From Myxococcus eversor (GTDB lineage: Bacteria > Myxococcota > Myxococcia > Myxococcales > Myxococcaceae), in the NCBI RefSeq assembly GCF_010894455.1, contig NZ_JAAIXY010000011.1, forward strand, positions 1 to 64,000: a stretch of 64,000 nucleotides of DNA, read 5' to 3'. This document shows positions 26,733 through 46,009 of the stretch, one piece after another. Position 1 is the stretch's first letter, and the number at the start of each line of letters is the position of its first letter. Under the pieces are notes generated by a model, which worked only from the letters and a program-made list of their open reading frames with translations, was not told the origin of the DNA and did no database searches. The translations under genes were made by a program, and so were the position numbers.

Positions 26733-28349
26733 ATGCGAATCACCTTCCTGGGCCATGCGGGTTTCGCGGTGGAGACCGAGCGGAGCGTCGTCGTCATGGA
26801 CCCGTGGCTCACCGAGCGGGGAGCCTTCGACTCGGCGTGGATGCAGCTTCCGCGCAACCACCACGTGGCCCCGCGCGTGCGGGAGCTGCTGGAGACGCCG
26901 GGCCGGGAGCGCTTCCTCTACGTCAGCCACGAGCACAAGGACCACTTCGACCCGGAGTTCCTGGCCACGCTCCAGCGGCGCGACTTCACGGTGGTGATTC
27001 CGCGCTTCCTGCGCTCGGAGCTGCAGGACATCTTCGCGAAGTACGGCTGCAAGCGCGTCATCGCCTGCGAGGACGGACGCGAGGTCCCCTTCAAGGGCGG
27101 CTACCTCAAGCTCTTCGTGTCGGAGCAGGGCACCAACCGGGACTCGGCCATCATGGTGCGAGGAGACGGCCAGTGCTTCATCAACCTCAACGACTGCAAG
27201 CTGCATGACCGCCTGGCGCGCATCACCGAGGAAGAGGGGCCCATCGACATCTTCACGGCCCAGTTCTCCGGCGCCATCTGGCACCCCACCTGTTACGAGT
27301 ACTCGCCGGAGACCTACGCGGCCATCTCCCTGAAGAAGCGGGAGAGCAAGTTCGAGGCGGTGGCGCGGGCGCTGGAGGTGGTGAAGCCGCGGGCATACCT
27401 CGCGTCAGCGGGGCCCGCGTGTTTCCTGGACCCGTCCCTGTTCCACCTCAACTTCGAGAAGGTGAACATCTTCCCCAACGCGACCACGCTGTTCCGCTTC
27501 CTGGAGCAGCGCCTGCCGGGGGCCGCGTCGAAGTACCTGGAGCCGATGCCGGGAGACGTGCTGGACGTGGGCTCGCTGGACTTCGTCTCGCTCGAGGCGG
27601 AGCGGGTGACGGCGGAGGGCATGGAGGCGTACCTCCGGACGTACGCGGCGGACATGGCGCCGCTGTTCCGGGAGCGGCGCCGCAACATGCTGCGCGCGGA
27701 GGCGGATGAGATTCATGCGCGGCTGCGCGTGGAGCTGCAACGCAAGCTGGACCTTTTGGACCTGCACGAGCGCGTGGGCATGCCGCTGTACGTGGAGCTG
27801 ACGGAGCTTCCAGAGCGGCTGCTGCGGGTGGACTTCAAGGGCCGGCGCGTGGACGAAGTCACGGAGGTCCGCGAGACGACGCGCTACGCGATGAAGGTGT
27901 CCGCGGCTGACATCGTTCGGGTGTTGGACCGGAAGCTGACGTGGGAGGACTTCCTGCTGTCCTTCCGGTTGCGGCTGAGCCGGTCTCCGGACGTCTACGA
28001 GCCCATCCTCCACGGCTTCCTGGGCGTGGAGATTGAAGACATGCGCGCCTTCTGCGAGGGCGTGCGCTCCACGGAGTCCCAGCGCGAGCGGACCGTGGTG
28101 ACGGTGGGACAGAAGCGCTTCTCCGTGCAGCGCTTCTGTCCGCACCAGGGCGCGGACCTGGCGGAAGGCTGGGTGGAGGAGGGGCGCTACCTCGTCTGCC
28201 CTCGCCACCGCTGGCAGTTTGATCTGGAAGACGGTGGGCGCTGCCCGGTGAACGGCTCCACGCTCTGCGCGGAGCCTGTCACCGATACCGTGCCCGAGGA
28301 GACGGAGAAGCCCTCCGCCCCCGCGACGGTCATCGAGCCACGCGCGTAG
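26733..28349 (+). CDS. Metallo-beta-lactamase fold protein with C-terminal Rieske [2Fe-2S] domain
   Basis: 538 residues. The N-terminal UlaG-like metallo-beta-lactamase domain starts MRITFLGHAGF and has the metal motif SHEHKDH near residue 70. A helical middle region follows (about 330-450). The C-terminal Rieske domain has the cluster ligands Cys469 and His471 (CPHQG) and Cys489 and His492 (CPRH). CMP-N-acetylneuraminate hydroxylase combines the same two folds with the Rieske domain at the N-terminus; here the order is reversed. A redox enzyme or oxygenase is likely, substrate unknown. The ATG at 26733 was chosen because the fold begins exactly there, although the frame stays open upstream. 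Its stop lies one base from the stop of the convergent LamG gene. Confidence 0.88.
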   Translation: MRITFLGHAGFAVETERSVVVMDPWLTERGAFDSAWMQLPRNHHVAPRVRELLETPGRERFLYVSHEHKDHFDPEFLATLQRRDFTVVIPRFLRSELQDIFAKYGCKRVIACEDGREVPFKGGYLKLFVSEQGTNRDSAIMVRGDGQCFINLNDCKLHDRLARITEEEGPIDIFTAQFSGAIWHPTCYEYSPETYAAISLKKRESKFEAVARALEVVKPRAYLASAGPACFLDPSLFHLNFEKVNIFPNATTLFRFLEQRLPGAASKYLEPMPGDVLDVGSLDFVSLEAERVTAEGMEAYLRTYAADMAPLFRERRRNMLRAEADEIHARLRVELQRKLDLLDLHERVGMPLYVELTELPERLLRVDFKGRRVDEVTEVRETTRYAMKVSAADIVRVLDRKLTWEDFLLSFRLRLSRSPDVYEPILHGFLGVEIEDMRAFCEGVRSTESQRERTVVTVGQKRFSVQRFCPHQGADLAEGWVEEGRYLVCPRHRWQFDLEDGGRCPVNGSTLCAEPVTDTVPEETEKPSAPATVIEPRA

Positions 28350-28350
28350 C

Positions 28351-31300
28351 TCAGGGCTCGAAGCCCGCGCCACCGTTCCACAGGCGCTGGCTCTCGGCCT
28401 CGGTCAGCACGCGCTTCCAGTAGCCGACGGCATCCAGCGTGCCGTGCAGGTGGGCGTCCTCGCAGGTGTTGTGGGCGCCCAGGTTCAGATCGCCGGATGT
28501 CACCTGGACGCCCGTGGACCAGGGGGCGGACACCACCGTCCCACGGTCCGCCGTCGTCCCCACGCGCAGGTGGATGCTTCCCGCGAGCGCGTCGTGCCAG
28601 GCCTCCAGGAAGTAGAACGTGTCCAGGCTCACGGGCGCGGGGTGGATGACGCCGCCCAGCTCTCCAGGGCCCGCGTCTCCGGTGCTCGACACCTGGAATT
28701 CGAAGTGCTGAAGCGCGGCGTTGTACCAGACGCGGTACTCGCGTCCGCCGGCCTCGTTGTTCCATTTACCGACGAGGGTCTGGTTGTCGTAGAACGAAGA
28801 CATCCGCATCCAGCCCGCCCACGTGAAGCTGCCTCGGCCGTGGCTCATGGTGGAGACGTTGGGTCGCCAGAAGTGGTAGCCGTTGGGGCCGTTGATCTGC
28901 TGTCCCATGCCCTGGATGGCGGGCACGCGCGTGATTCCGACCGCGTCCTCGGGGAAGGGGCCCACATCCATGCCGCTCGCCGCGTCGACGCGGTCCTCGG
29001 TGCCCGTCTCCTCCAGCTTGAAGAACATCACCGCGGACTCGGCCAGCGAGGTCGCCGGGTCCACGGGGACGCGGACGCACGAGGTCAACCCGTACTTGGC
29101 CGCGAGGTAGTCCTCGATGGCCTCCCGCTCCGAGGGCGCAAGCGCGCGGTGGTAGACGATGACCTCCGAGATGAGCCCCGCGAACGGATCTCTGGACTGG
29201 TCGCTCTGGGCGCCGTCGCTCGCGCCCAGCGTGGACCTCCCGTAGGCGTAGGCGTTCGTCGTGGCGGTGGAGGAGCCCTTCGCGGCGCAGTTGACGAACA
29301 GCCGGCTGTTGCTGGATTGAGCCACCGCGCTCAGCACGCGGAGCGCTCCGTCGTGAGCCGTCGTAGGGGAGGACAGGTACAGGCCGCTGCCGTTCGAGTT
29401 GGCCTTCACCGTGGGCTTCCCTCCGACGAAGGCCAGGGCGCCGCCGTAGGTGGTGAGGAAGCCCGCGGAGGAGGAGCCGGTGCCCAGCACGTGGCCCTCG
29501 GTGTCGTTCGTCTGGAGCACGGCGAAGACGGTGACGGGGAAGTCGCCAGTGGCGAAGGTATTGGCGGTCAGGTCGAGCCGGTCATTGGCGCCGTCGAACT
29601 CGACGGCCGAGTGGCCCGCGAGGGCGGAGCGTCGCAGCACGGGCTGGAGGGCAGGGGCAGCCTGGGTGGCATGGTTCGTCTGGCCGGAGGTGTCCGGCCA
29701 CAGGCCCACCGTCGCGCCATTCGCCCCCTGCAGGTCATCCGCGCGCAGCCACAGCGCGCGTCCGCTGGTGATGACGGCCTCGTCGGCGCAGGTGCTGTTG
29801 TCACCTCCGCACACGCCGCATGCATCGATGACGGCGCCGCTGCCTGGCACGCCATCACAGCCCGGAGGAAGGGAGAGGCCCACGCCATACTTCGCGCCGA
29901 GGTATTGCTCGATGTGGAGCCGCTCGAACTCGCTGAGCGCGCGCTGGTAGACGATGACCTCGGCCAGCTCACCGGCGAAGGGGTCCTGGGACGCGGAGGT
30001 GTTGCCGCCGTCGCTGGCGCCGAGCGTGGACTTTCCATAGGCGTACGCTCCGAGCGCCGTATACGACAGCCCCGCGACCTGCCCATTGACGAACAGGCTG
30101 CTGGGGCCTCCGTGTGCCACGGCGGAGAGCACGCGGGGCTGTCCATCGTGGATGACGGGGCCTTGGAGGAGCAGGCCCGCGCTGTTCGAGTTGGCCTTGA
30201 GCGTGGGCTTCCCGGCCGCCAGGGCAAGGCCTCCACCGTAGGTGGTGAGGAAGCCCGCGGATGAGGAGCCCGTCCCCACCAGATGGGCGTTCGCGTCGGT
30301 GGTCCGGAGCACCGCGAAGACGGTGAGGGGAAACTGACCGGGCGCGAAGACATTCGTGGTCAGGTCGAGTCGGTCATTGACCCCGTCGAACTGGAGCACC
30401 GCGTGGCCGGAGAGCTGGTTCCGCCTCACCACGGGGCGGGCACCGGCGACGCCCTGGAGGGCGTGGTTGCCCAGTCCGGAGGCATCCCGCCAGCTCGCCA
30501 CGGCCGAGCCCTCCGTCCCGTCCAGGTCATCCGCGCGCAGCCACAGGGCGCGACCGCTGGCGATGACGGCTTCGTCGGCGCAGGTGCTGTTGTCACCTCC
30601 GCACACGCCACACGCATCGACGATGGCGTGACTGCCTGGCACGCCGTCACAACCCGGGGGCAGGGTGATGGTGAGCTGATACTGGCTCCCCAGGCACAGC
30701 TCCAAGGCGTTGCGCTCCGCGTCGCCCAGCACTCTGTCATAGACGAGCAGCTCCGCCAGTCGACCCGCGAAGGCATCGCGCGAGGCGTTGCTGCTGGCAC
30801 CGTCGCTGGCGCCCAACGTGGCCTTGCCATAGGCGTAGGTGTTGAGTGCCGCGCTCGACGCGCCCATGGCCTGTCCATTGACGAAGAGGGTGGTGCTCCC
30901 GCCTTGCAGGACGGTGGAGAGGAGCCGTGGCTGCCCGTCCGCGATGGAGCCGGGGCTGCTCAGCAGAAGGCCGCTGCCATTCGAGTTGGCCTTCACCGTG
31001 GGCTGGCCCGCGACCAGCGTGACGCCCTTGCCGTAGGTGGTCAGGAACCCCGCGCTGGACGAGCCGGTGCCCGCCAGGTGGGCCTGCGTGTCATTCGTCT
31101 GGACCACCGCGAGCACCGTGAGCGGCGCGTTGCCGGCGAAGAGATTGTGGGTCAGGTCCAGCCGGTCATCGACGCCGTCGAACTCGATGGCGGCCCGCCC
31201 GCCAATCGCGCCGTGACGCACCACGGGTCGCAGGCCCGCCGCCGTCTGGACGGCATGAAGGCCTTGTCCGGAGATATCCGCCCAGCTCGCCAGCGGGGCT

Positions 31301-31515
31301 CCCTCCGCATGGGTGAGCTGACCGGCGCTGAGCCACAAGCGCAGTCCCACGGTCGGGGGCCCGCACTCACTCGACTCCGTGGAGACCCGCGGAGTCGCGA
31401 GCGATTCGGCGGTGCGTCCGGAGTCCGAGCAGGACCACCAGACCGGACTCAGGAGCAGCACGGCGGCCAGGCATCCGGAGACCGGCGTCACACCGAAGGA
31501 CAAGAAAGGGCGCAT
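28351..31515 (-). CDS. Secreted protein with four LamG-like domains
   Basis: 1054 residues with a signal peptide (about 1-29, possibly a lipoprotein at SC29). Three very similar concanavalin/LamG-type repeats follow, each starting RALWLRAD or equivalent and containing VEFDGVNDRLDL, GSSSAGFLTTYG and TLGASDG. They are joined by a Cys-rich hinge, GCDGVPGS then DACGVCGGDNSTC. A fourth, different LamG domain (about 830-1050) ends the protein. The period is 264 residues (792 bp). LamG domains bind glycans or protein partners, so adhesion or matrix binding is likely. It is probably monocistronic; the convergent neighbour is one base away. Confidence 0.85.
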   Translation of the reverse strand: MRPFLSFGVTPVSGCLAAVLLLSPVWWSCSDSGRTAESLATPRVSTESSECGPPTVGLRLWLSAGQLTHAEGAPLASWADISGQGLHAVQTAAGLRPVVRHGAIGGRAAIEFDGVDDRLDLTHNLFAGNAPLTVLAVVQTNDTQAHLAGTGSSSAGFLTTYGKGVTLVAGQPTVKANSNGSGLLLSSPGSIADGQPRLLSTVLQGGSTTLFVNGQAMGASSAALNTYAYGKATLGASDGASSNASRDAFAGRLAELLVYDRVLGDAERNALELCLGSQYQLTITLPPGCDGVPGSHAIVDACGVCGGDNSTCADEAVIASGRALWLRADDLDGTEGSAVASWRDASGLGNHALQGVAGARPVVRRNQLSGHAVLQFDGVNDRLDLTTNVFAPGQFPLTVFAVLRTTDANAHLVGTGSSSAGFLTTYGGGLALAAGKPTLKANSNSAGLLLQGPVIHDGQPRVLSAVAHGGPSSLFVNGQVAGLSYTALGAYAYGKSTLGASDGGNTSASQDPFAGELAEVIVYQRALSEFERLHIEQYLGAKYGVGLSLPPGCDGVPGSGAVIDACGVCGGDNSTCADEAVITSGRALWLRADDLQGANGATVGLWPDTSGQTNHATQAAPALQPVLRRSALAGHSAVEFDGANDRLDLTANTFATGDFPVTVFAVLQTNDTEGHVLGTGSSSAGFLTTYGGALAFVGGKPTVKANSNGSGLYLSSPTTAHDGALRVLSAVAQSSNSRLFVNCAAKGSSTATTNAYAYGRSTLGASDGAQSDQSRDPFAGLISEVIVYHRALAPSEREAIEDYLAAKYGLTSCVRVPVDPATSLAESAVMFFKLEETGTEDRVDAASGMDVGPFPEDAVGITRVPAIQGMGQQINGPNGYHFWRPNVSTMSHGRGSFTWAGWMRMSSFYDNQTLVGKWNNEAGGREYRVWYNAALQHFEFQVSSTGDAGPGELGGVIHPAPVSLDTFYFLEAWHDALAGSIHLRVGTTADRGTVVSAPWSTGVQVTSGDLNLGAHNTCEDAHLHGTLDAVGYWKRVLTEAESQRLWNGGAGFEP
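29781..30670 (-). repeat. 792-bp internal repeat with Cys-rich hinge
   Basis: The hinge coding sequence begins at 29781 and again at 30573 in near-identical form, 792 bp (264 codons) apart, within three tandem LamG units. Near-identity at DNA level points to recent duplication or gene conversion. Confidence 0.75.
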
Positions 31516-39615: not shown

Positions 39616-41496
39616 TCAATCGAGGGGCAGGAAGTCCGGCTGGGACGCGCTCTTCGACATGGGCCCGGTGGGCCCGTCGTTGAGGATGCACTCGCCAGCG
39701 ATGGGCTCGGAGACTTCGCAGCCCGACTTCGGGTTGCCCCAGCGCTCGGTGCGGTTCAGCCAGGACAGGCTTCCCGTGAAGGTGCCCGGCGTGCGCCAGT
39801 CGAAGGGCACCAGCGCGCTCCACGTGTCCCAGGCGATGCCGCGTCCGGTGTCATCCGCCAGGAAGTCGCCGTTGGGGAGGTTCTGGTAGATGTGCCGTGC
39901 GGCATCCGCGTAGACGCCGTGCGAGCCCTGGGCGGAGAAGAGCTCCGGTCGCCAACCCAAAAGGCCCATGCCCTTGTCGCCATAGGTGAACGTCTGCCCG
40001 CTGGCGTGCTGGCTCAAATAGACCTGCGACGGACGGCCCTCCACGAAGCGCACCGTGGCGTGCTCCCAGTCCCCCACGTGATTGCCAAAGGTGGAGTACC
40101 CACCCACGCAGCCCCAGGGCGAGTACCAGCCGATGCAGACGCGCTTGCCATTGTTGTACGGATAGAACATCCAATACACCACGTCCGTCGTCGACGTGGG
40201 CTGCCCGTTCGCCGTGCGCGTGATGAGCTCCGCATAGACAGGCACCGGCGTCTGGTTCGGCCGCTGCCCATCCAGGAACTGCGGGTCCGTGCAGGAGTCA
40301 CAGCCCAGCGCCTGGTTCGTCACCTGATGACCGCCCTCCACGTGCACGTTGGCGAGGTGGAACTCGGTGGATGAGGGGAAGTAGGCCTCGCCCGGGTGCA
40401 TCCACACGCGAGGAGCGAAGGCGGCGGCCGTGGCGGCGCTCACGGGCAGCCCCTGAAGCTCGGGGTTCGCCGTCGCGCTCTTGTTGATGGCCCAGTAGCG
40501 GCTGCCTCCCGTGTCGGAGTGACTGGGGCGCGCGACGAAGGTGGTGGCGGGAAGTCCCCGATGATCTCGAACCAGCGGCTGCCAGAGGCCCACGTCGTTG
40601 TTCGCGCCGGAGCCGCTGTCATTCCACAGCGCGCTCGGGTTGGCTGCCACCAAATACTCATTCTTGACGCAGCGGATGAGGTCCGTGGAGGGCTTGCCGT
40701 AACCCAGCACGCCCACCGCGCCCAGGCAGGTGTAGCCCGCGGGCGCGACGGGTTCCCAGAACGAGCCATCGTGCGTTCCGCCCGAGCCCTTGTCGTCCCA
40801 CACCCAGACGTAGTCCACGGGCCGCGCGAGCAGGTCCCCCTCGCCCTGAACCACCAGCGCCGTCGAGGGCGCGGGGCCTCCTCCGCCGTTGGGCATCGCG
40901 ACATCGCCCAGGGAGTAATAGCCCGGCGACTGGGCAAGGTTGGGGCGCCAGATGGAGACGTCGTCGTTCGAGCCCGTGCCGCTGTCGTCGTAGACCCACT
41001 GGAACGTGGACACGGGCTTGACGAGCAGTCGCTGGCTGAAGCGCAGCGGCGCCCTGTCGGAGACGAGGGTGAGGTCCGCGCTCTGTCCCGGTGAGGCCGT
41101 CGCCGCGACGAGCTTGTACGTGCCGGGAGCCAGCGAGACGGAGAGCCGCGCGCCCAGGTTGCCCGCGCTGTTGTCGTCCTCGGCGAGCACGTTGCCGCTC
41201 GCGTCGAGCAGATAGAGATAGGCATCCACGGTCGAGGTGAGGGTGAACGTCACCGTCGCGGTGGGGCCCGCGTGGTCGACGATGAACGTGCGATTGCCGG
41301 GGTGCGTGGGACTCCGGCCGCCCGAGCCGAGCCAGCGCCCATACACGGTGTTGCCCTGGAGCCCCGCGAGGGACGCTTCCGTGTCGCGGAGCGCCGTGTC
41401 CTCCACGGCCTCCAACGAACCACCACATCCCAGAGCGCCCACCCCCAGCGATGACAACACGAGCCAGCGGAGTGAACCCAGACGTCCAGCGAGCAT
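39616..41496 (-). CDS. Vps62/DUF946-family lipoprotein, probably frameshifted at the 3' end
   Basis: 626 residues from ATG 41496, five bases after GAAGAGG. An ALGC lipobox (Cys24) precedes a pre-peptidase C-terminal (PPC)-like beta-sandwich at about 50-145 (TVDAYLYLLDASGN). A large Vps62-like region of about 150-620 follows, with repeated VYDDSGTGSNDDVSIWRP-type motifs and GNHVGDWEHATVRF. The role is unknown; Vps62-like domains occur in secreted bacterial and fungal proteins. Oddity: immediately after the stop, a +1 frame continues for about 35 codons to a stop at 39513-39515 with nearly all third positions G or C. This implies one extra base near the CCCC run at 39624-39627. Confidence 0.8.
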   Translation of the reverse strand: MLAGRLGSLRWLVLSSLGVGALGCGGSLEAVEDTALRDTEASLAGLQGNTVYGRWLGSGGRSPTHPGNRTFIVDHAGPTATVTFTLTSTVDAYLYLLDASGNVLAEDDNSAGNLGARLSVSLAPGTYKLVAATASPGQSADLTLVSDRAPLRFSQRLLVKPVSTFQWVYDDSGTGSNDDVSIWRPNLAQSPGYYSLGDVAMPNGGGGPAPSTALVVQGEGDLLARPVDYVWVWDDKGSGGTHDGSFWEPVAPAGYTCLGAVGVLGYGKPSTDLIRCVKNEYLVAANPSALWNDSGSGANNDVGLWQPLVRDHRGLPATTFVARPSHSDTGGSRYWAINKSATANPELQGLPVSAATAAAFAPRVWMHPGEAYFPSSTEFHLANVHVEGGHQVTNQALGCDSCTDPQFLDGQRPNQTPVPVYAELITRTANGQPTSTTDVVYWMFYPYNNGKRVCIGWYSPWGCVGGYSTFGNHVGDWEHATVRFVEGRPSQVYLSQHASGQTFTYGDKGMGLLGWRPELFSAQGSHGVYADAARHIYQNLPNGDFLADDTGRGIAWDTWSALVPFDWRTPGTFTGSLSWLNRTERWGNPKSGCEVSEPIAGECILNDGPTGPMSKSASQPDFLPLD

Positions 41497-41581
41497 ACGG
41501 GCCTCTTCATGTCCCTGCGTGGACGCGCAGGATGCCCTCAAGTCTCTTCAAGACACCAGTCTGGCGTCTGGAAGGAATGCG

Positions 41582-42259
41582 TCACGACGGCGGAACCGCG
41601 AGCTGGAACGTCAACCGCACATTGTCCGAGCGCAGTCCCAAGGGGCCTTCGAGCGCGAGGGCCTCCGGGGGAAGGTCGCCCTCCCACGTCAGCGCGTCAT
41701 CCGTCCACACGCGCAACGTCACGCCTCGCAACTCCGTGCGCAGGGTGTGCTCCTTGCCCCAGGAGGGCGCGCTCACCGCGCCGCGTCGAAAGGGGGGGAC
41801 GGTGACATAGCCCCGGTTGCCACAGTCGCTGCTCTTGTCCTGGTCGGGATTGCGCTTGTAGTTGACGACGACGCCTGCCTTCGGAGCGAAGCGCCACATC
41901 ACATACAACACGTTGCAGCCGTCCCGCGCGCGCAGCTTGAGACCCACCTGCTGACGCTGCTCACCGGACTGCAAGGCCCGCTGCTCGTCGGTGGGCGCTC
42001 GAGGCAGGAAGCGCAGCTCGGCGCGGGCCGCGATGTCCGTGCCGGGCACGAAGGCTCGCAGTCGCGCTCCATCCACGTCGAGCCACCCATCGGGCCGCTC
42101 GCGCAGCGCGCCCTGCGTCACCTTCAGCTTCGACAAGGGCACCGGGGCGAGCGTCGTCATGGGTTTCCTCGCCGGAGGAGGTCGCCCCCACCCGAGGCCC
42201 AAGAGCGCGCCCAGGCCCAGACAGGCCACGAGGACTCGACTCCGGGCCATGGTGGACAT
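41582..42259 (-). CDS. Secreted carbohydrate-binding-like (DUF1080/LamG-like) protein
   Basis: 225 residues. The ATG at 42259 overlaps the TGA of the upstream gene (TGATG), so translation is coupled; an internal ATG at 42250 is an alternative. A signal peptide (VLVACLGLGALLGLGWG) is followed by one beta-sandwich domain with LRAFVPGTDIAARAELRFL, KLRARDGCNVLYVMWRF and WGKEHTLRTELRGVTLRVW. This resembles the 3-keto-disaccharide hydrolase-like/LamG jelly roll. As last gene of the GT2 operon it may bind or trim the exported glycan. Confidence 0.7.
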   Translation of the reverse strand: MSTMARSRVLVACLGLGALLGLGWGRPPPARKPMTTLAPVPLSKLKVTQGALRERPDGWLDVDGARLRAFVPGTDIAARAELRFLPRAPTDEQRALQSGEQRQQVGLKLRARDGCNVLYVMWRFAPKAGVVVNYKRNPDQDKSSDCGNRGYVTVPPFRRGAVSAPSWGKEHTLRTELRGVTLRVWTDDALTWEGDLPPEALALEGPLGLRSDNVRLTFQLAVPPS

Positions 42260-43389
42260 CAGGGACGGGGCGTCCCGAGGAAGGCCGTGAGCGCCTCCAG
42301 GTGGGCCGTCAGGTAGGCCTGTTCCGCGCGCAGCCGAGCCAGCTCCAGCAGGAGGTAGTCCCGGAACCGGCGAATCTCTCGCGTCTGGAGCGCCTCCACT
42401 TCCTTGAGCTGGCCCTCCAGGTCCGACACGAGCGCGGACACCTCCCGCAGCCGGGCCTCCTCCGTGCGGTGTCGCGAGCGCAGCTCCACCAGCAGCTCGG
42501 AGACCTCCTGGTGCACGCCCTCCACCTCGTGCAGCGTCGAGCGGCGGCGTCCCTCGCGCGCCCGGGCATTCGCCTTGCCCTGCCACAGGTGCCCCAGGTC
42601 ATACGTCAACATGACCTGCCCGAAGAGGGGGACGTCCTGGTCCAGGTCGAAGACCTCGTCATAGCCTCCGCGAACGCTCAGCTCCCAGGCCTTGGCCCGG
42701 CGCAGGCTCCCGGTGGCGACCTCCACCGCGTCATCCGCCGCGCGCAGCTCCTCCAGCAGTGATTCCAACCGCTGGCCCTGGGGGAAGGCGGGACGCGAGG
42801 CGAGCCGCTCGCGCGCCAGCGTCGTGTCCGTGTTCAGCGAGCGCAGGTTGTCCAAGCGCACCTGCACCGCGTTGAGTTCTTCCAGCGTCGCCCGGCCATC
42901 CTTGAGGTCCGCGCGCAGGGCGGTGACGAGCGCCTCAGCGCGGGGCAGGGCGTCCTGGAGCACGCGCGCCCGAGCCTCCAGCGCGGAGTCCTCGCCCAGC
43001 CCCGTGCCCTGTCGGACGGCGGCCTGGAGCGAGGAGAGGGCTTGGTGACGCCGGCATTCGGCCGCGGCGCGGCGGTGGATCTTGTGTCCCCGGTACAGGC
43101 CGACGAAGTCGTAGCTGAGGCCCGCCGTCACGCGCAGCTTGGGCTTGCCCAGGGCGGTGCCACCTTCGGCCTCACCGGTGTTCACCGCGCCGAACGCGCC
43201 GAACACCTCCGGGGCCAGCTCCAGCGCGGCCTCCGCCTCGCCCAGGCCCCGCACCCAGTCGCAGTAGCCCGCGGCGCGCCCTTCAACGCGTGCATCGGGA
43301 GGAGAGGGGGCGTCGGGTGGCGCCGCGAGGGCCGCCGGGGTTCGCGCGGCGAGGCACAGCAGCACGCCGCAAGTGAGGGTCTTCCGCAT
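42259..43389 (-). CDS. TolC-like outer-membrane efflux protein
   Basis: 376 residues from ATG 43389 with GGAG seven bases upstream. A signal peptide ends near ALAAPP. The mature part alternates beta-type segments (LRVTAGLSYDFVGLYRG; WELSVRGGYDEVFDL; PLFGQVMLTYDLGHLWQG) with long helices full of charged heptads, the two-fold layout of outer-membrane factors of the TolC family. It is a little short (TolC proteins are usually 420-480). Placed between an HlyD-like adaptor and a secreted protein and downstream of a GT2 synthase, it is the likely outer-membrane exit duct. The stop overlaps the next ATG. Confidence 0.72.
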   Translation of the reverse strand: MRKTLTCGVLLCLAARTPAALAAPPDAPSPPDARVEGRAAGYCDWVRGLGEAEAALELAPEVFGAFGAVNTGEAEGGTALGKPKLRVTAGLSYDFVGLYRGHKIHRRAAAECRRHQALSSLQAAVRQGTGLGEDSALEARARVLQDALPRAEALVTALRADLKDGRATLEELNAVQVRLDNLRSLNTDTTLARERLASRPAFPQGQRLESLLEELRAADDAVEVATGSLRRAKAWELSVRGGYDEVFDLDQDVPLFGQVMLTYDLGHLWQGKANARAREGRRRSTLHEVEGVHQEVSELLVELRSRHRTEEARLREVSALVSDLEGQLKEVEALQTREIRRFRDYLLLELARLRAEQAYLTAHLEALTAFLGTPRP

Positions 43390-43422
43390 GGGGCTTCTCC
43401 ACGTCTTCATGGGCGCCTGCAC

Positions 43423-44523
43423 TCACAGCACCAGGGGCGCGCGGCCCAGGTGCAGCAGGTCCTCGCGAGCCGACGCGGAGTCCGTGAGCTTCACCTCCAC
43501 CATCACCCCGCGCAGCATGTGCTGACGGATGGGGTGCTTGATGGAGACCTCGCCCTCCAGCACGCGGCCCACCACGCCCACCTCGCGGCACCAGACGACC
43601 TTCGCGGCGCACGCGAAGAGGGGCGTGCCCACCGCCGCGTTGTTCAGGTTCTCGTACGGCACGAAGGCCACCGTCAGGTCCTTCTCGATGGCGCGCAGAT
43701 AGGGTGAGGCCCGCAGCGACGCGATGAGCGCCTCGTAGCGCTGGGCCACGTCCTCGAGCGCCTTCAGGTCCTGCTCCAGGCTGCGCAGCGTCGCCTCCGC
43801 GCGCGCCTGCTCCAGCACCGAGTGCGTGTACTCGCGCTCCAGGAGGAGCACGTCCGGGGTGATTCCCGCCGGCGTGCCGTCCTTGCCCATCCCGTCCTGC
43901 ACCGCCGTCAGCCCCGCGAGCTCCCGGTGCAGCGAATCCACTCGCGTCTCTAGATCCACGGTGGTCTGCGCGAGCGACAGGTTGCTCTGCGCCAGCTGCG
44001 CCAGGTGGTGGTTGATGGTGAGCTTGTCCTCCTGCTGGAGCAGCCGTGCGCCGTACATGGCATCCGTGCGCGCGCGCGACAGCCCCGCGTAGGCGCGGTT
44101 GGATTGGAGAATCTCGGCGCGCGCCCGGCTGTACTCCTGGCGCAGGGAGGCCAGCCGCTTCGCGACGCGGTCCTTGGACGCGCGCTCACTTCGCAAGGCC
44201 ACGAGGAAGCGCTGTTGGAACGCGTGCTCCGAGGACACGGTGCGCTCGGCGTCCTCGATGCGATTCTCCACCGAGCGCCGCTCGGCGACGACGTGGTCCC
44301 TGGAGGACGTCTGCGCCGCCAGCTGCGTGTTCAACGAGAGGATTTGAGGGTCCGTGGGAGACACCACCGTGGGCGTCACCCAGCCGTGGCTCAAGAGGAA
44401 GAAGCCCTGGACCGACAGGAAGGACACCAGCGCCGCCAGGATGAGCCCCAGGAGCACCGAGCCCAGGAGCTTGTACGTGGACACGGCGATGGCGTTGATG
44501 CGGTTCGCGACGCGTTGGTTCAT
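43423..44523 (-). CDS. HlyD-like membrane-fusion (adaptor) protein
   Basis: 366 residues. The ATG at 44523 overlaps the TGA of the GT2 gene (ATGA), a sign of coupling. One transmembrane helix lies at about 18-40 (LLGSVLLGLILAALVSFL), followed by a long periplasmic coiled-coil hairpin (about 75-270) with many Arg/Glu/Leu heptads. The C-terminal beta-rich part (about 285-366) has AFVPYENLNNAAVGTPLFAC, GRVLEGEVSIKHP and GVMVEVKL. This is the architecture of periplasmic adaptors that bridge an inner-membrane machine and a TolC-like duct; Alg44-type polysaccharide adaptors are the closest functional analogue. Confidence 0.75.
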   Translation of the reverse strand: MNQRVANRINAIAVSTYKLLGSVLLGLILAALVSFLSVQGFFLLSHGWVTPTVVSPTDPQILSLNTQLAAQTSSRDHVVAERRSVENRIEDAERTVSSEHAFQQRFLVALRSERASKDRVAKRLASLRQEYSRARAEILQSNRAYAGLSRARTDAMYGARLLQQEDKLTINHHLAQLAQSNLSLAQTTVDLETRVDSLHRELAGLTAVQDGMGKDGTPAGITPDVLLLEREYTHSVLEQARAEATLRSLEQDLKALEDVAQRYEALIASLRASPYLRAIEKDLTVAFVPYENLNNAAVGTPLFACAAKVVWCREVGVVGRVLEGEVSIKHPIRQHMLRGVMVEVKLTDSASAREDLLHLGRAPLVL

Positions 44524-45770
44524 GGAGAACCCTCTCCGGCGGGGTTGGGCGGCAGCCCACCGCGGTTGTCCGCGGTGGAAGGTGCCGGGGCGGCGCTGGG
44601 ACTGCCCCGGGTCTCCCAACTGCCGGAGTCCAGCGTCAGCAGCGCCAGCGGTGTGAACAGCGCGTACGTCACCGGCATCAGCAGGGCCATGGGCAGGAAG
44701 CACGCCCCATGCACCCGCCGGTCCTCGGGCAGGTGCCGGGTCTCCATCCGGTAGATGATTCCCAGGAGGCCGATGACGAGGAAGTGGAACGAGAGGATGT
44801 CCAGGAACTCCCCGGTGAGGACGTTGTGGACGATGACGACGGGGTAGGCGAGCAGCAGCGCGAGCTGGGACACGTAGTGGACGGTGATGACCGGATGCAG
44901 GCGCCACGCGTGGGACAGGCCGCCGAGCAGGTCCACCAGGTTGGAGCGCCGCCACCGCAGCTGCTGGGAGAAGTAGCCGGCCAGGGTCGCGGGCGCGGCG
45001 GTGAAGCAGAACGCGTCCAGCGTGTAGACGGTTTCATAGTCGTGCTTGACGATCTGCCGCGTGAGGAACCGGTCCTCGCCGTACTTGATGGGGATGCCGG
45101 CGATGGAGCGCGCCTCCAGGATGGGCTCCAGCTCCAGGAGCACGTGGCGGCGATACGCGGTGAGGCAGCCGGACAGGCACATCACCTGTCGGAAGCTGCG
45201 CTCCAAATCCTTCAGCCACTGCTGGGCGAAGTGGAATTTGATCTCCACCATGCGCGTCAGCCAGTTCTGGTGGCGGTTCGTCACGAAGGTGCGACCACCC
45301 ACGGCGGCGATGCGCGGACTGACGAATCGGCGGACGAGGTTGCGCACCGCGCTCTTATCCACGATGACGTCCGAGTCCACCGAGACGATGATTTCCGCGT
45401 CGACCGCGGCCTGGACGCCTCGGTTGATGCCCTTGCGCTTGCCCAGGTTCTCCGGGTTGCGCATGACGAGGACGTTGGCGTGGCCCTCCGCGGCCTTCAT
45501 CGCCCACGCGTAGCTGTCATCCTTGGAGCAGTCGTCCACCACCACGATTTGCAGCAGCTCGCTGGGGTAGTCCTGCTCCAGCAGGCTGCGGATGGCGTGG
45601 AAGATGCCCTTCCCCTCGTTGAAGAGGGGGATGACGATGGCGACACGAGGCCGGTACGTGTCGTCCGCGCGGTCGATGCTGGGCCCTCGCAGGCGCCGCA
45701 GGAACGGACCGAGGATGTAGCGGTTCATCAACACGACGATGAACAGCAGATGGATGGGAAACAGCTCCAT
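44520..45770 (-). CDS. Processive family 2 glycosyltransferase (polysaccharide synthase)
   Basis: 416 residues with two N-terminal membrane segments at most, then a GT-A domain: VIPLFNEG, DDCSKDDS, VDSD (metal), the acceptor-site motif YGEDRFLT and QQLRW. The last is the QxxRW signature of processive synthases such as cellulose, chitin and hyaluronan synthases. Three or four C-terminal membrane helices (about 295-390) fit a translocating synthase. The product is a beta-linked polymer by analogy; sugar identity is unknown and no PilZ domain is present. It is the first gene of a four-gene overlapping operon with adaptor and outer-membrane duct. The ATG at 45770 has only a weak ribosome binding site. 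Confidence 0.88.
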   Translation of the reverse strand: MELFPIHLLFIVVLMNRYILGPFLRRLRGPSIDRADDTYRPRVAIVIPLFNEGKGIFHAIRSLLEQDYPSELLQIVVVDDCSKDDSYAWAMKAAEGHANVLVMRNPENLGKRKGINRGVQAAVDAEIIVSVDSDVIVDKSAVRNLVRRFVSPRIAAVGGRTFVTNRHQNWLTRMVEIKFHFAQQWLKDLERSFRQVMCLSGCLTAYRRHVLLELEPILEARSIAGIPIKYGEDRFLTRQIVKHDYETVYTLDAFCFTAAPATLAGYFSQQLRWRRSNLVDLLGGLSHAWRLHPVITVHYVSQLALLLAYPVVIVHNVLTGEFLDILSFHFLVIGLLGIIYRMETRHLPEDRRVHGACFLPMALLMPVTYALFTPLALLTLDSGSWETRGSPSAAPAPSTADNRGGLPPNPAGEGSP

Positions 45771-45855
45771 CAGGTCCCGTCCCCGCTCACGCCGCCACCC
45801 CTTCCCCTGACGGCCCCGACGCCGCCCCCATTCTCCCGTGAGGGAGCGGTGGGAA

Positions 45856-45884
45856 AGTTGGCGGGGAATGGGCTCGCGCCAACT
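45856..45884. promoter_or_regulatory. Inverted repeat upstream of the polysaccharide operon
   Basis: AGTTGGCG (45856-45863) and CGCCAACT (45877-45884) form a perfect 8-bp inverted repeat with a 13-base spacer, 86-114 bases upstream of the GT2 start in the 239-bp gap. It is a candidate operator; no clear -35/-10 pair was found. Confidence 0.35.
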
Positions 45885-46009
45885 GCCCCGAGGGACGGTG
45901 GAAGGGGATTGCTCACCCAGGCGTCATCGCGCGACGGGTGCCGTCCGGAACACGTCAGCCCCAGGGCCCGGAGGGCACCCTCGACTTCTCGCGCTCGACG
46001 CCCGTGGGC

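What the first reader, a model, noticed from the sequence alone, without database searches (positions are those of the whole stretch)
41582..45770. Four-gene synthase-adaptor-duct operon for a secreted polysaccharide
Seen: a processive GT2 (VDSD, YGEDR, QxxRW), an HlyD-like coiled-coil adaptor, a TolC-like protein and a secreted jelly-roll protein. Three of the four junctions are tight: ATGA and TGATG overlaps and a 33-base gap. Known: cellulose and alginate synthase systems use BcsC or AlgE/AlgK ducts, not a TolC factor; tripartite HlyD/TolC export is known for proteins and small molecules. Inference: this operon may push a polymer straight from a synthase through an adaptor and a TolC-like trimer, an uncommon arrangement.
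Basis: partly seen in the sequence, partly recalled or inferred. Interest (0 to 1): 0.7.

Follow-up and report, generated by a model that had tools for sequence, protein, structure and literature searches.

The report
Polysaccharide synthase with its own duct
Myxobacteria carry a conserved four-gene unit that couples a sugar-polymer-making enzyme to a membrane-anchored coiled-coil protein, a TolC-type outer-membrane channel and a small fourth protein, which may be a self-contained way to make a polysaccharide and push it out of the cell; the polymer and its function are untested.

Summary
The four genes are real and lie together in the same order in 40 of 40 genomes with GT2 and adaptor orthologues (the window's and 39 others). 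Among 100 genomes, both occur in 40, GT2 alone in 1, adaptor alone in 0 (one divergent adaptor set aside). The GT2 is NodC/hyaluronan-synthase-like. The third protein has a TolC fold (Foldseek 3.5e-9). The adaptor has one membrane helix, a predicted long coiled-coil hairpin and two invariant cysteines, but 0 of 14 members match an HlyD model, while a BgsB control does; 'HlyD-like' is open. The fourth protein is not DUF1080. Adaptor and channel recur together, beside a nucleotide-sugar dehydrogenase and a GT2 or GT2-like gene, in Paraburkholderia and another myxobacterium. In 13 of 39 relatives a GlxA-like oxidase gene sits divergently beside the GT2; in 27 of 39 a Rieske/metallo-beta-lactamase-like gene lies beyond the fourth gene, and the window has it 13 kb away. 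Best reading: synthase-dependent secretion with a dedicated TolC-type duct, a variant of BgsBA and the proposed XcsAB-TolC. A 2020 paper reported no synthase-dependent pathway in M. xanthus. Substrate and export are inferred.

The parts
44520..45770 (-). Processive family-2 glycosyltransferase, NodC/hyaluronan-synthase type, 416 aa; UDP-sugar polymerase and inner-membrane translocase (inferred)
   Evidence: Pfam Glyco_tranf_2_3 2e-30 and Chitin_synth_2 3.7e-17; NodC model 165 bits, under its 550 cut-off; PDB: a family-2 glycosyltransferase (6yv7, 3.1e-16) and hyaluronan synthases (4.3e-16 to 8.8e-15); catalytic motifs conserved
43423..44523 (-). Adaptor: one N-terminal membrane helix, predicted coiled-coil hairpin with about 100 residues per arm, C-terminal domain with two invariant cysteines (C305, C312); family without a Pfam model
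   Evidence: AlphaFold2 model, pLDDT 69.9, pTM 0.42, helices mostly confident, C-terminal domain not; hydropathy; C305 and C312 in 50 of 50 distinct sequences
42259..43389 (-). TolC-type outer-membrane channel protein, short (376 aa with signal-like N-terminus)
   Evidence: Pfam OEP just above cut-off; Foldseek 38 PDB chains at E<=1e-3, all channel entries (31 by title, 7 with generic titles), best 3.5e-9; VIA rows 1-29 all such entries, Z 13.8-9.8, row 30 at 8.0
41582..42259 (-). Small protein with signal-like N-terminus (by eye); family unknown; always the fourth gene
   Evidence: Conserved family, 40-59% identity to the window across 11 relatives; no Pfam family above cut-off, no PDB match
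26733..28349 (+). Rieske protein with a metallo-beta-lactamase-like N-terminus; in 27 of 39 relatives its homologue lies convergent beyond the fourth operon gene (within about 300 bases in 25); here 13 kb away
   Evidence: 80% identity to the relatives' neighbour; Pfam Rieske 3.9e-10, Lactamase_B_3 23.2 bits, just under its cut-off of 24. Link to the operon is inferred from synteny
45771..46009 (.). Intergenic region upstream of the GT2; presumed promoter region (no sigma-70-like site found)

Best explanation
The operon encodes a complete synthase-dependent polysaccharide secretion system. The GT2 polymerises a UDP-sugar, probably giving an N-acetylhexosamine-containing chain or a glucan, and passes the growing chain through the inner membrane. 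The adaptor, anchored in the inner membrane beside it, spans the periplasm with a long coiled-coil hairpin and docks onto a trimer of the TolC-type protein, which forms the outer-membrane exit. The fourth protein binds or trims the chain. Shown here: gene identity, motifs, TolC-type fold of the model, strict co-occurrence. Inferred: the physical complex, the polymer, the direction of transport, the role of the fourth protein.
For: GT2 class and motifs. TolC-type fold. Four genes in order in 40 of 40 genomes with both orthologues (the window and 39 loci, tblastn); the GT2/adaptor junction is a 4-base overlap in 34 of 38 loci where it could be measured. Co-occurrence in 100 genomes (own plus 99 relatives): 40 both, 1 GT2 only, 0 adaptor only, 59 neither, with the divergent adaptor of G057 set aside. 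Adaptor and channel families recur together in Paraburkholderia sp. PGU19 (L092) and in G057 (L041): hhalign 99.7 and 99.1% for the adaptor, 96.7 and 98.2% for the channel, negative controls 0.1-2.2%. Both carry a nucleotide-sugar dehydrogenase (TIGR03026 above cut-off); L092 also has a GT2 of the same class, L041 a GT2-like protein. GlxA-like oxidase beside the GT2 in 13 of 39 loci.
Against: No experiment. The adaptor has no firm sequence match to a known adaptor family; its C-terminal domain was modelled at pLDDT about 40 and the packing of its helices was not inspected, so docking is unproven. The model matched generic coiled coils, none at E<=0.001; the one membrane-fusion protein that I saw listed, LipC, had Z 10.8 at rank 45, not above unrelated rows. 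The channel matches have low TM-scores (0.31-0.43) and rmsd of about 9-11 A over 322-339 residues in VIA rows 1-26, and the best Z barely passes the tool's caution line of about 13 for helical proteins. The channel homologues of L092 and L041 have no Pfam OEP match. In L037 the channel ORF is only 255 aa. GT2 genes of this clade occur without a visible adaptor in G038 (draft; one copy at a contig end, one beside tat-like ORFs recognised by eye) and as a second copy at a contig end in G061. Co-occurrence is not corrected for relatedness.
Confidence: 0.66

Rival explanations
1. The GT2 makes a short oligosaccharide or glycolipid (NodC-like signal) rather than a long polymer, and the adaptor and TolC-type protein export that small molecule.
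For: Best curated profile is NodC, a chito-oligosaccharide synthase (165 bits); TolC-type channels are best known for small molecules and proteins (general knowledge).
Against: None of the four genes is an ABC, MFS or RND pump; flanking ORFs were judged mostly by eye, so a separate pump is not excluded. The NodC score is far below its 550-bit cut-off; the operon GT2 rows are separate from NodC in the tree.
Confidence: 0.15
2. The adaptor is not a duct part but a chain-length or assembly co-polymerase of the synthase (PCP-like), and export uses the TolC-type protein more loosely.
For: Adaptor lacks HlyD profile matches; a membrane helix plus long coiled coil also recalls Wzz-type co-polymerases (recalled, not tested); the two invariant cysteines have no counterpart tested here.
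Against: The hydropathy scan gives one membrane segment, at the N-terminus, where a co-polymerase would be expected to have two (recalled); linkage to a TolC-type gene holds in 40 of 40 genomes and also in L092 and L041, in L041 with a different gene order.
Confidence: 0.13
3. The four genes are neighbours without a joint machine; the TolC-like protein serves other exporters of the cell.
For: TolC itself serves many pumps (general knowledge); no biochemical link.
Against: Gene order kept in 40 of 40 genomes with differing flanks, overlapping start/stop codons, and joint recurrence of adaptor and channel in two distant loci.
Confidence: 0.06

Closest known systems
BgsBA mixed-linkage beta-glucan system of Sinorhizobium and Rhizobium
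   Same: GT2 synthase and a periplasmic adaptor gene side by side, overlapping in R. etli; [quoted passage not shown]
   Different: BgsB matches Pfam HlyD_3 at 1.9e-15 and BgsB-type adaptors match EmrA-type by profile at 98.9%, the window adaptor does not; no TolC-type gene in the stretches fetched; BgsA falls with cellulose synthases, the window GT2 does not; gene order reversed
Proposed XcsAB-TolC cellulose export of cyanobacteria (Maeda 2018, seen only through the review PMC12430437)
   Same: Synthase, HlyD-like adaptor and TolC-like channel proposed as one tripartite duct
   Different: [quoted passage not shown] synthase and HlyD-like genes are together in two cyanobacteria and scattered in T. 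vulcanus. Cellulose-synthase type with PilZ domain; here no PilZ domain was found and a channel gene is in the operon
CslA-GlxA cellulose synthase complex of Streptomyces
   Same: GT2 beside a GlxA-like radical copper oxidase gene, as in 13 of 39 relatives of this locus (PMC11022532, abstract and section list)
   Different: Gram-positive; the window itself has no oxidase gene beside its GT2; the relatives' oxidase scores 212 bits against the GlxA cut-off of 800
Bcs, Alg and Pga synthase-dependent systems
   Same: Membrane GT2 that polymerises and translocates, linked export genes
   Different: They use TPR scaffolds and a beta-barrel porin (PMC9603273, passages); here a TolC-type channel
Type I secretion and tripartite efflux (HlyD/TolC)
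   Same: Inner-membrane-anchored protein with long coiled coil, and TolC-type fold
   Different: No ABC, MFS or RND pump among the four genes; the synthase would supply the driving force (inferred)

Membership tests
Processive GT2 polysaccharide synthase | D, DxD, (T/G)ED and QxxRW motifs plus membrane segments | tested here: met
   VDDCS, VDSD, GEDR, QQLRW, WETR aligned with NodC and Paraburkholderia; four hydrophobic segments. Processivity itself not testable here
NodC (NCBIfam TIGR04242) | Score above the curated cut-off of 550 bits | tested here: not met
   165 bits
Cellulose or mixed-linkage glucan synthase (BcsA/BgsA) | Groups with BcsA/BgsA in a tree | tested here: not met
   BcsA, BgsA and an A. 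fabrum cellulose synthase form a separate group at 100/100; 11 of 11 operon GT2 rows lie outside it (long branches flagged by the tool)
TolC outer-membrane factor family | OEP profile match | tested here: met
   23.6-23.7 bits, cut-off 22, for the window protein; 5 of 14 aligned members at E<=0.01; homologues in L092 and L041 have none
TolC outer-membrane factor family | TolC fold with two beta-hairpins and long helices | tested here: met
   pLDDT 74.9, pTM 0.63; Foldseek best 3.5e-9, TM 0.31-0.43 for the 38 chains; VIA best Z 13.8, rmsd 9.2, 330 aligned
TolC outer-membrane factor family | Trimer in the outer membrane | not testable with these tools
   Single-chain model only
HlyD / membrane fusion protein family | Match to a Pfam HlyD model | tested here: not met
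   0 of 14 members at E<=0.1; positive control BgsB HlyD_3 1.9e-15
HlyD / membrane fusion protein family | Profile-profile similarity to known members | tested here: inconclusive
   BgsB-type: 9.4% (14 sequences), 27.6% (50), 8.7% (without L041 and L092), C-terminal part alone 0.5%; EmrA-type 0.2-0.7%; positive control 98.9%, negative controls 0.1-2.2%
HlyD / membrane fusion protein family | Single N-terminal membrane helix | tested here: met
   One segment, 20-38, in the hydropathy scan; helix 2-44 in the model
HlyD / membrane fusion protein family | Long antiparallel alpha-hairpin | tested here: inconclusive
   Helices 59-161 and 164-211/223-271 around a turn; packing not inspected; SMC coiled-coil fragments are the top match at E 0.0085
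HlyD / membrane fusion protein family | Lipoyl and beta-barrel domains | tested here: inconclusive
   Residues 284-366 modelled at pLDDT about 40
CslA-GlxA type | GlxA-like oxidase gene beside the synthase | tested here: not met
   Not beside the window GT2; present in 13 of 39 relatives
DUF1080 (fourth protein) | Profile match | tested here: not met
   0 of 12 members
Jelly roll fold (fourth protein) | Fold | not tested
   No model was made; one Laminin_G_2 hit at E 0.032 in 12 members

The most novel reading that the evidence does not exclude
The adaptor and TolC-type protein form a transferable 'polymer duct' module of a new adaptor family that different GT2 synthases plug into, and the cargo is a C6-oxidised amino-sugar polymer: oxidised at the precursor by a nucleotide-sugar dehydrogenase (closest to TviB, under its cut-off) in the Paraburkholderia and G057 versions, or on the chain by a GlxA-like copper radical oxidase in many myxobacterial versions, with the linked Rieske/metallo-beta-lactamase-like protein altering the N-acyl group (as recalled for the Rieske hydroxylase NamH).
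Probability: 0.2. Interest if true: 0.8.

Novelty: new variant of a known kind. Interest (0 to 1): 0.6.

Why it matters
Synthase-dependent export through a TolC-type channel has been proposed for cyanobacterial cellulose, but a 2025 review says the model is unvalidated and its parts are not in one operon (PMC12430437, passages). This operon puts synthase, candidate periplasmic bridge and channel in one gene unit in a group that can be worked with genetically and that includes Myxococcus xanthus (L048, strain AM003), so the idea can be tested directly. [quoted passage not shown] xanthus after BLASTP with known components (PMC7484181, passages). The repeated GlxA-like neighbour suggests that coupling of a GT2 with a copper oxidase, known from Streptomyces, may also exist in Gram-negative bacteria.

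Tried and rejected
Adaptor as HlyD by Pfam, PDB sequence profile, Foldseek (PDB and viral) and hhalign: no firm match; the weak BgsB signal (8.7-27.6%) is above the negative controls (0.1-2.2%) but far below the positive control (98.9%). The VIA second look listed mostly unrelated coiled coils, LipC among them at Z 10.8; the absence of other membrane-fusion proteins there excludes nothing.

Fourth protein as a relative of the Paraburkholderia GH16-like protein: hhalign 0.7%, rejected.

Lone GT2 genes with about 30% identity in other myxobacteria as part of such operons: in seven loci (L110-L116) tblastn found neither adaptor nor channel; four of the seven were also listed as ORFs. Three further loci (L107-L109) hold GT2 genes of the operon clade without adaptor; L108 and L109 end at a contig edge by the GT2.

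Wider search for the adaptor: with the window query 1 of 72,556 plasmid records, with the Paraburkholderia query 2 (itself and a Caballeronia partial match), with the G057 query 1; the Paraburkholderia channel query found only itself. In the phylum 61 of 195 genomes match, each in the window's own order.

No sigma-70-like promoter was found and terminator-like sites were about as many as in shuffles. An ORF chooser of mine failed to give the channel or fourth gene in a number of loci; the 40 of 40 count rests on tblastn.

Literature: searches for a Myxococcus synthase-HlyD-TolC or NodC-like system listed no paper that describes it by title or opening of abstract; one search found none, and of the others only PMC7484181, PMC9603273 and PMC12430437 were opened (passages). 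The library holds open-licence papers only.
Full report
Observation. The window holds four minus-strand genes between 45770 and 41582. The junctions are an ATGA overlap, a 33-base gap (from the start codon conserved in relatives) and a TGATG overlap. Codon-position GC is that of coding DNA. The description is accurate as to anatomy.

Synthase. The first protein matches Glyco_tranf_2_3 (2e-30), Glycos_transf_2 and Chitin_synth_2. The best curated profile is NodC at 165 bits, far under its 550-bit cut-off. The closest solved structures by sequence are a family-2 glycosyltransferase (6yv7) and hyaluronan synthases. VDDCS, VDSD, GEDR, QQLRWRRS and a C-terminal WETR align with NodC and a Paraburkholderia homologue. 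In a 25-row tree the 11 operon GT2 rows stand apart from cellulose/mixed-linkage glucan synthases (100/100) and from NodC plus a Lactococcus GT2 that is encoded beside a nucleotide-sugar dehydrogenase. Deep branches are long and partly unresolved, so the substrate cannot be read off.

Channel. The third protein passes the OEP cut-off narrowly (23.6 against 22); 5 of 14 aligned members match at E<=0.01. The AlphaFold model (pLDDT 74.9, pTM 0.63) shows, after the signal-like helix, helix, two strands, four helices, two strands, three helices. Foldseek lists 38 PDB chains at E<=0.001; 31 are named as outer-membrane channels or efflux systems with them, 7 have generic titles (5azo, 5azp, 5azs, 5ng5), best 3.5e-9. 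VIA rows 1-29 are such entries (Z 13.8 to 9.8), row 30 has Z 8.0. TM-scores are modest (0.31-0.43) and rmsd is about 10 A, so this is a shared fold with a short, diverged chain.

Adaptor. It has one hydrophobic segment at 20-38 and helices 59-161, 164-211 and 223-271 around a turn at 162-163, mostly at pLDDT 70-95. Residues 284-366 are poorly modelled, yet the C-terminal part (274-339) holds 11 of the 15 invariant columns of a 14-row alignment; C305 and C312 occur in 50 of 50 distinct sequences. No HlyD model matched in any of 14 members, whereas R. etli BgsB matches HlyD_3 at 1.9e-15. Profile comparison with seven BgsB-type adaptors gave 9.4% with 14 sequences, 27.6% with 50 and 8.7% when L041 and L092 were left out; the C-terminal part alone gave 0.5%; EmrA-type gave 0.2-0.7%. 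The positive control BgsB-EmrA gave 98.9%, negative controls 0.1-2.2%. I call it adaptor-like by topology, not a shown member of HlyD.

Fourth protein. Signal-like N-terminus by eye, conserved family (40-59% identity to the window), no Pfam family above cut-off, no DUF1080, no PDB match. A carbohydrate-binding or trimming role is a guess from its position.

Conservation. Among 100 genomes (the window's own and 99 relatives) the adaptor query matched 41, including 27 of 27 of the genus. One match (G057) is a divergent form and was set aside. GT2 orthologues at 50% identity or more occur in 41 genomes. The overlap is 40 both, 1 GT2 only (G038), 0 adaptor only, 59 neither; outside the genus 13, 1, 0, 59 (its Fisher values ignore relatedness). 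All 39 orthologous loci fetched plus the window have the four genes in order by tblastn; flanking genes differ among them. In L037 the channel ORF is cut to 255 aa. Of 38 measurable GT2/adaptor junctions, 34 are the same 4-base overlap. Of 21 loci from named genomes, 19 have all four and two end at a contig edge after the GT2; these overlap the 39 in species.

Wider kin. In Paraburkholderia sp. PGU19 the adaptor homologue (24% identity, 2e-8) is followed by a channel homologue, a nucleotide-sugar dehydrogenase, a GH16-like protein (22.4 bits against 22; EIDIE motif by eye) and a GT2. In G057 the order is nucleotide-sugar dehydrogenase, channel, adaptor and a 601-aa GT2-like protein that has no Pfam match at 0.01 and only a partial PgaC match, 3.6e-7. 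Both dehydrogenases pass the TIGR03026 cut-off; their best match is TviB, under its own cut-off. Adaptor and channel kinship is firm (99.7/99.1 and 96.7/98.2%). The Paraburkholderia GT2 is of the same class (100%), the G057 protein only distantly related (71%), and the GH16-like protein is not related to the fourth gene (0.7%). So adaptor plus channel may be a module used with more than one kind of synthase; that rests on G057.

Neighbours in relatives. In 13 of 39 loci, one of them in another family (G064), a gene with Glyoxal_oxid_N, kelch and GO-like E-set domains lies divergently upstream of the GT2. Its best NCBIfam match is radical copper oxidase GlxA (1.2e-62; 212 bits, cut-off 800), and the alignment to chain 4unm, which I recall to be Streptomyces GlxA (the tool names it only 'secreted protein'), keeps the FC, RWYPT, YH and TH blocks (that these hold the copper ligands is recalled). 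In Streptomyces, GlxA and the GT2 CslA form a cellulose synthase complex (PMC11022532, abstract). The window lacks the oxidase beside its operon; its genome has homologues at 41-55% elsewhere. In 27 of 39 loci a Rieske/metallo-beta-lactamase-like gene lies convergent to the fourth gene, within about 300 bases in 25 and about 1.2 and 4 kb away in L034 and L083. The window's homologue (80%) is at 26733-28349, next to a lipoprotein-like gene (74%) that also flanks it in the two relatives looked at, L087 and L074, so about 13 kb was probably inserted or rearranged in the window's lineage.

Mechanism. The most likely reading is that the GT2 makes and translocates a polymer, the adaptor bridges the periplasm and the TolC-type protein is the exit. 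It works like the proposed XcsAB-TolC duct and like BgsBA, without being shown to be a member of either. Shown: gene identity, channel fold of the model, strict linkage. Inferred: hairpin packing, complex, polymer, export.

Known literature. BgsBA: PMC9495663 and PMC7902896 (passages). XcsAB-TolC: PMC12430437 (passages). M. [quoted passage not shown] PMC9603273 (passages) describes porin-type export. HlyD-type adaptor genes directly followed by a GT2 gene occur in 5 of 6 further BgsB-type plasmid regions fetched (not in Fischerella). The finding is a new variant of a known kind.

Noticed in passing
L087:2500-5268 (minus), and 12 further of the 39 loci: GlxA-like radical copper oxidase gene divergently beside the GT2 in 13 of 39 relatives.
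   Followed up: partly
window 26733-28349 (+): Rieske/metallo-beta-lactamase-like protein whose homologues lie beyond the operon in 27 of 39 relatives; one relative (L037) also has a match below cut-off to an Rv3818-like SCP2 domain.
   Followed up: partly
L041:680-6006: Genome G057 (same family) has a divergent adaptor-channel pair with a nucleotide-sugar dehydrogenase and a GT2-like protein.
   Followed up: partly
L092:6449-13388: Paraburkholderia sp. PGU19 megaplasmid carries an EAL-domain gene, then adaptor, channel, nucleotide-sugar dehydrogenase, GH16-like and GT2 genes in a row.
   Followed up: partly
window 39616-41541 (-): Protein with Vps62 (7.7e-34) and a PPC-type match just under cut-off directly downstream of the operon; found by tblastn at this place only in the closest loci, L042, L061, L063 and L064.
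   Followed up: no
window 28351-31515 (-): 1054-aa protein with several Laminin_G_3 stretches, next to the Rieske gene on the operon side.
   Followed up: no
L123-L127: HlyD-type adaptor directly followed by a GT2 or cellulose-synthase gene, twice with a GH8 gene nearby, on plasmids of Agrobacterium, Pacificitalea, Sinorhizobium, Palleronia and Bradyrhizobium; no TolC gene is listed in these stretches.
   Followed up: partly
L107:10434-11681 (-): In G038 a lone GT2 of the operon clade (68% identity) sits without adaptor beside ORFs that look like tatA and tatC by eye.
   Followed up: no
L047: A record titled Comamonas sp. KCTC 72670 carries the operon with a GT2 87% identical to the window's; the organism name looks wrong for a Myxococcus genome.
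   Followed up: no
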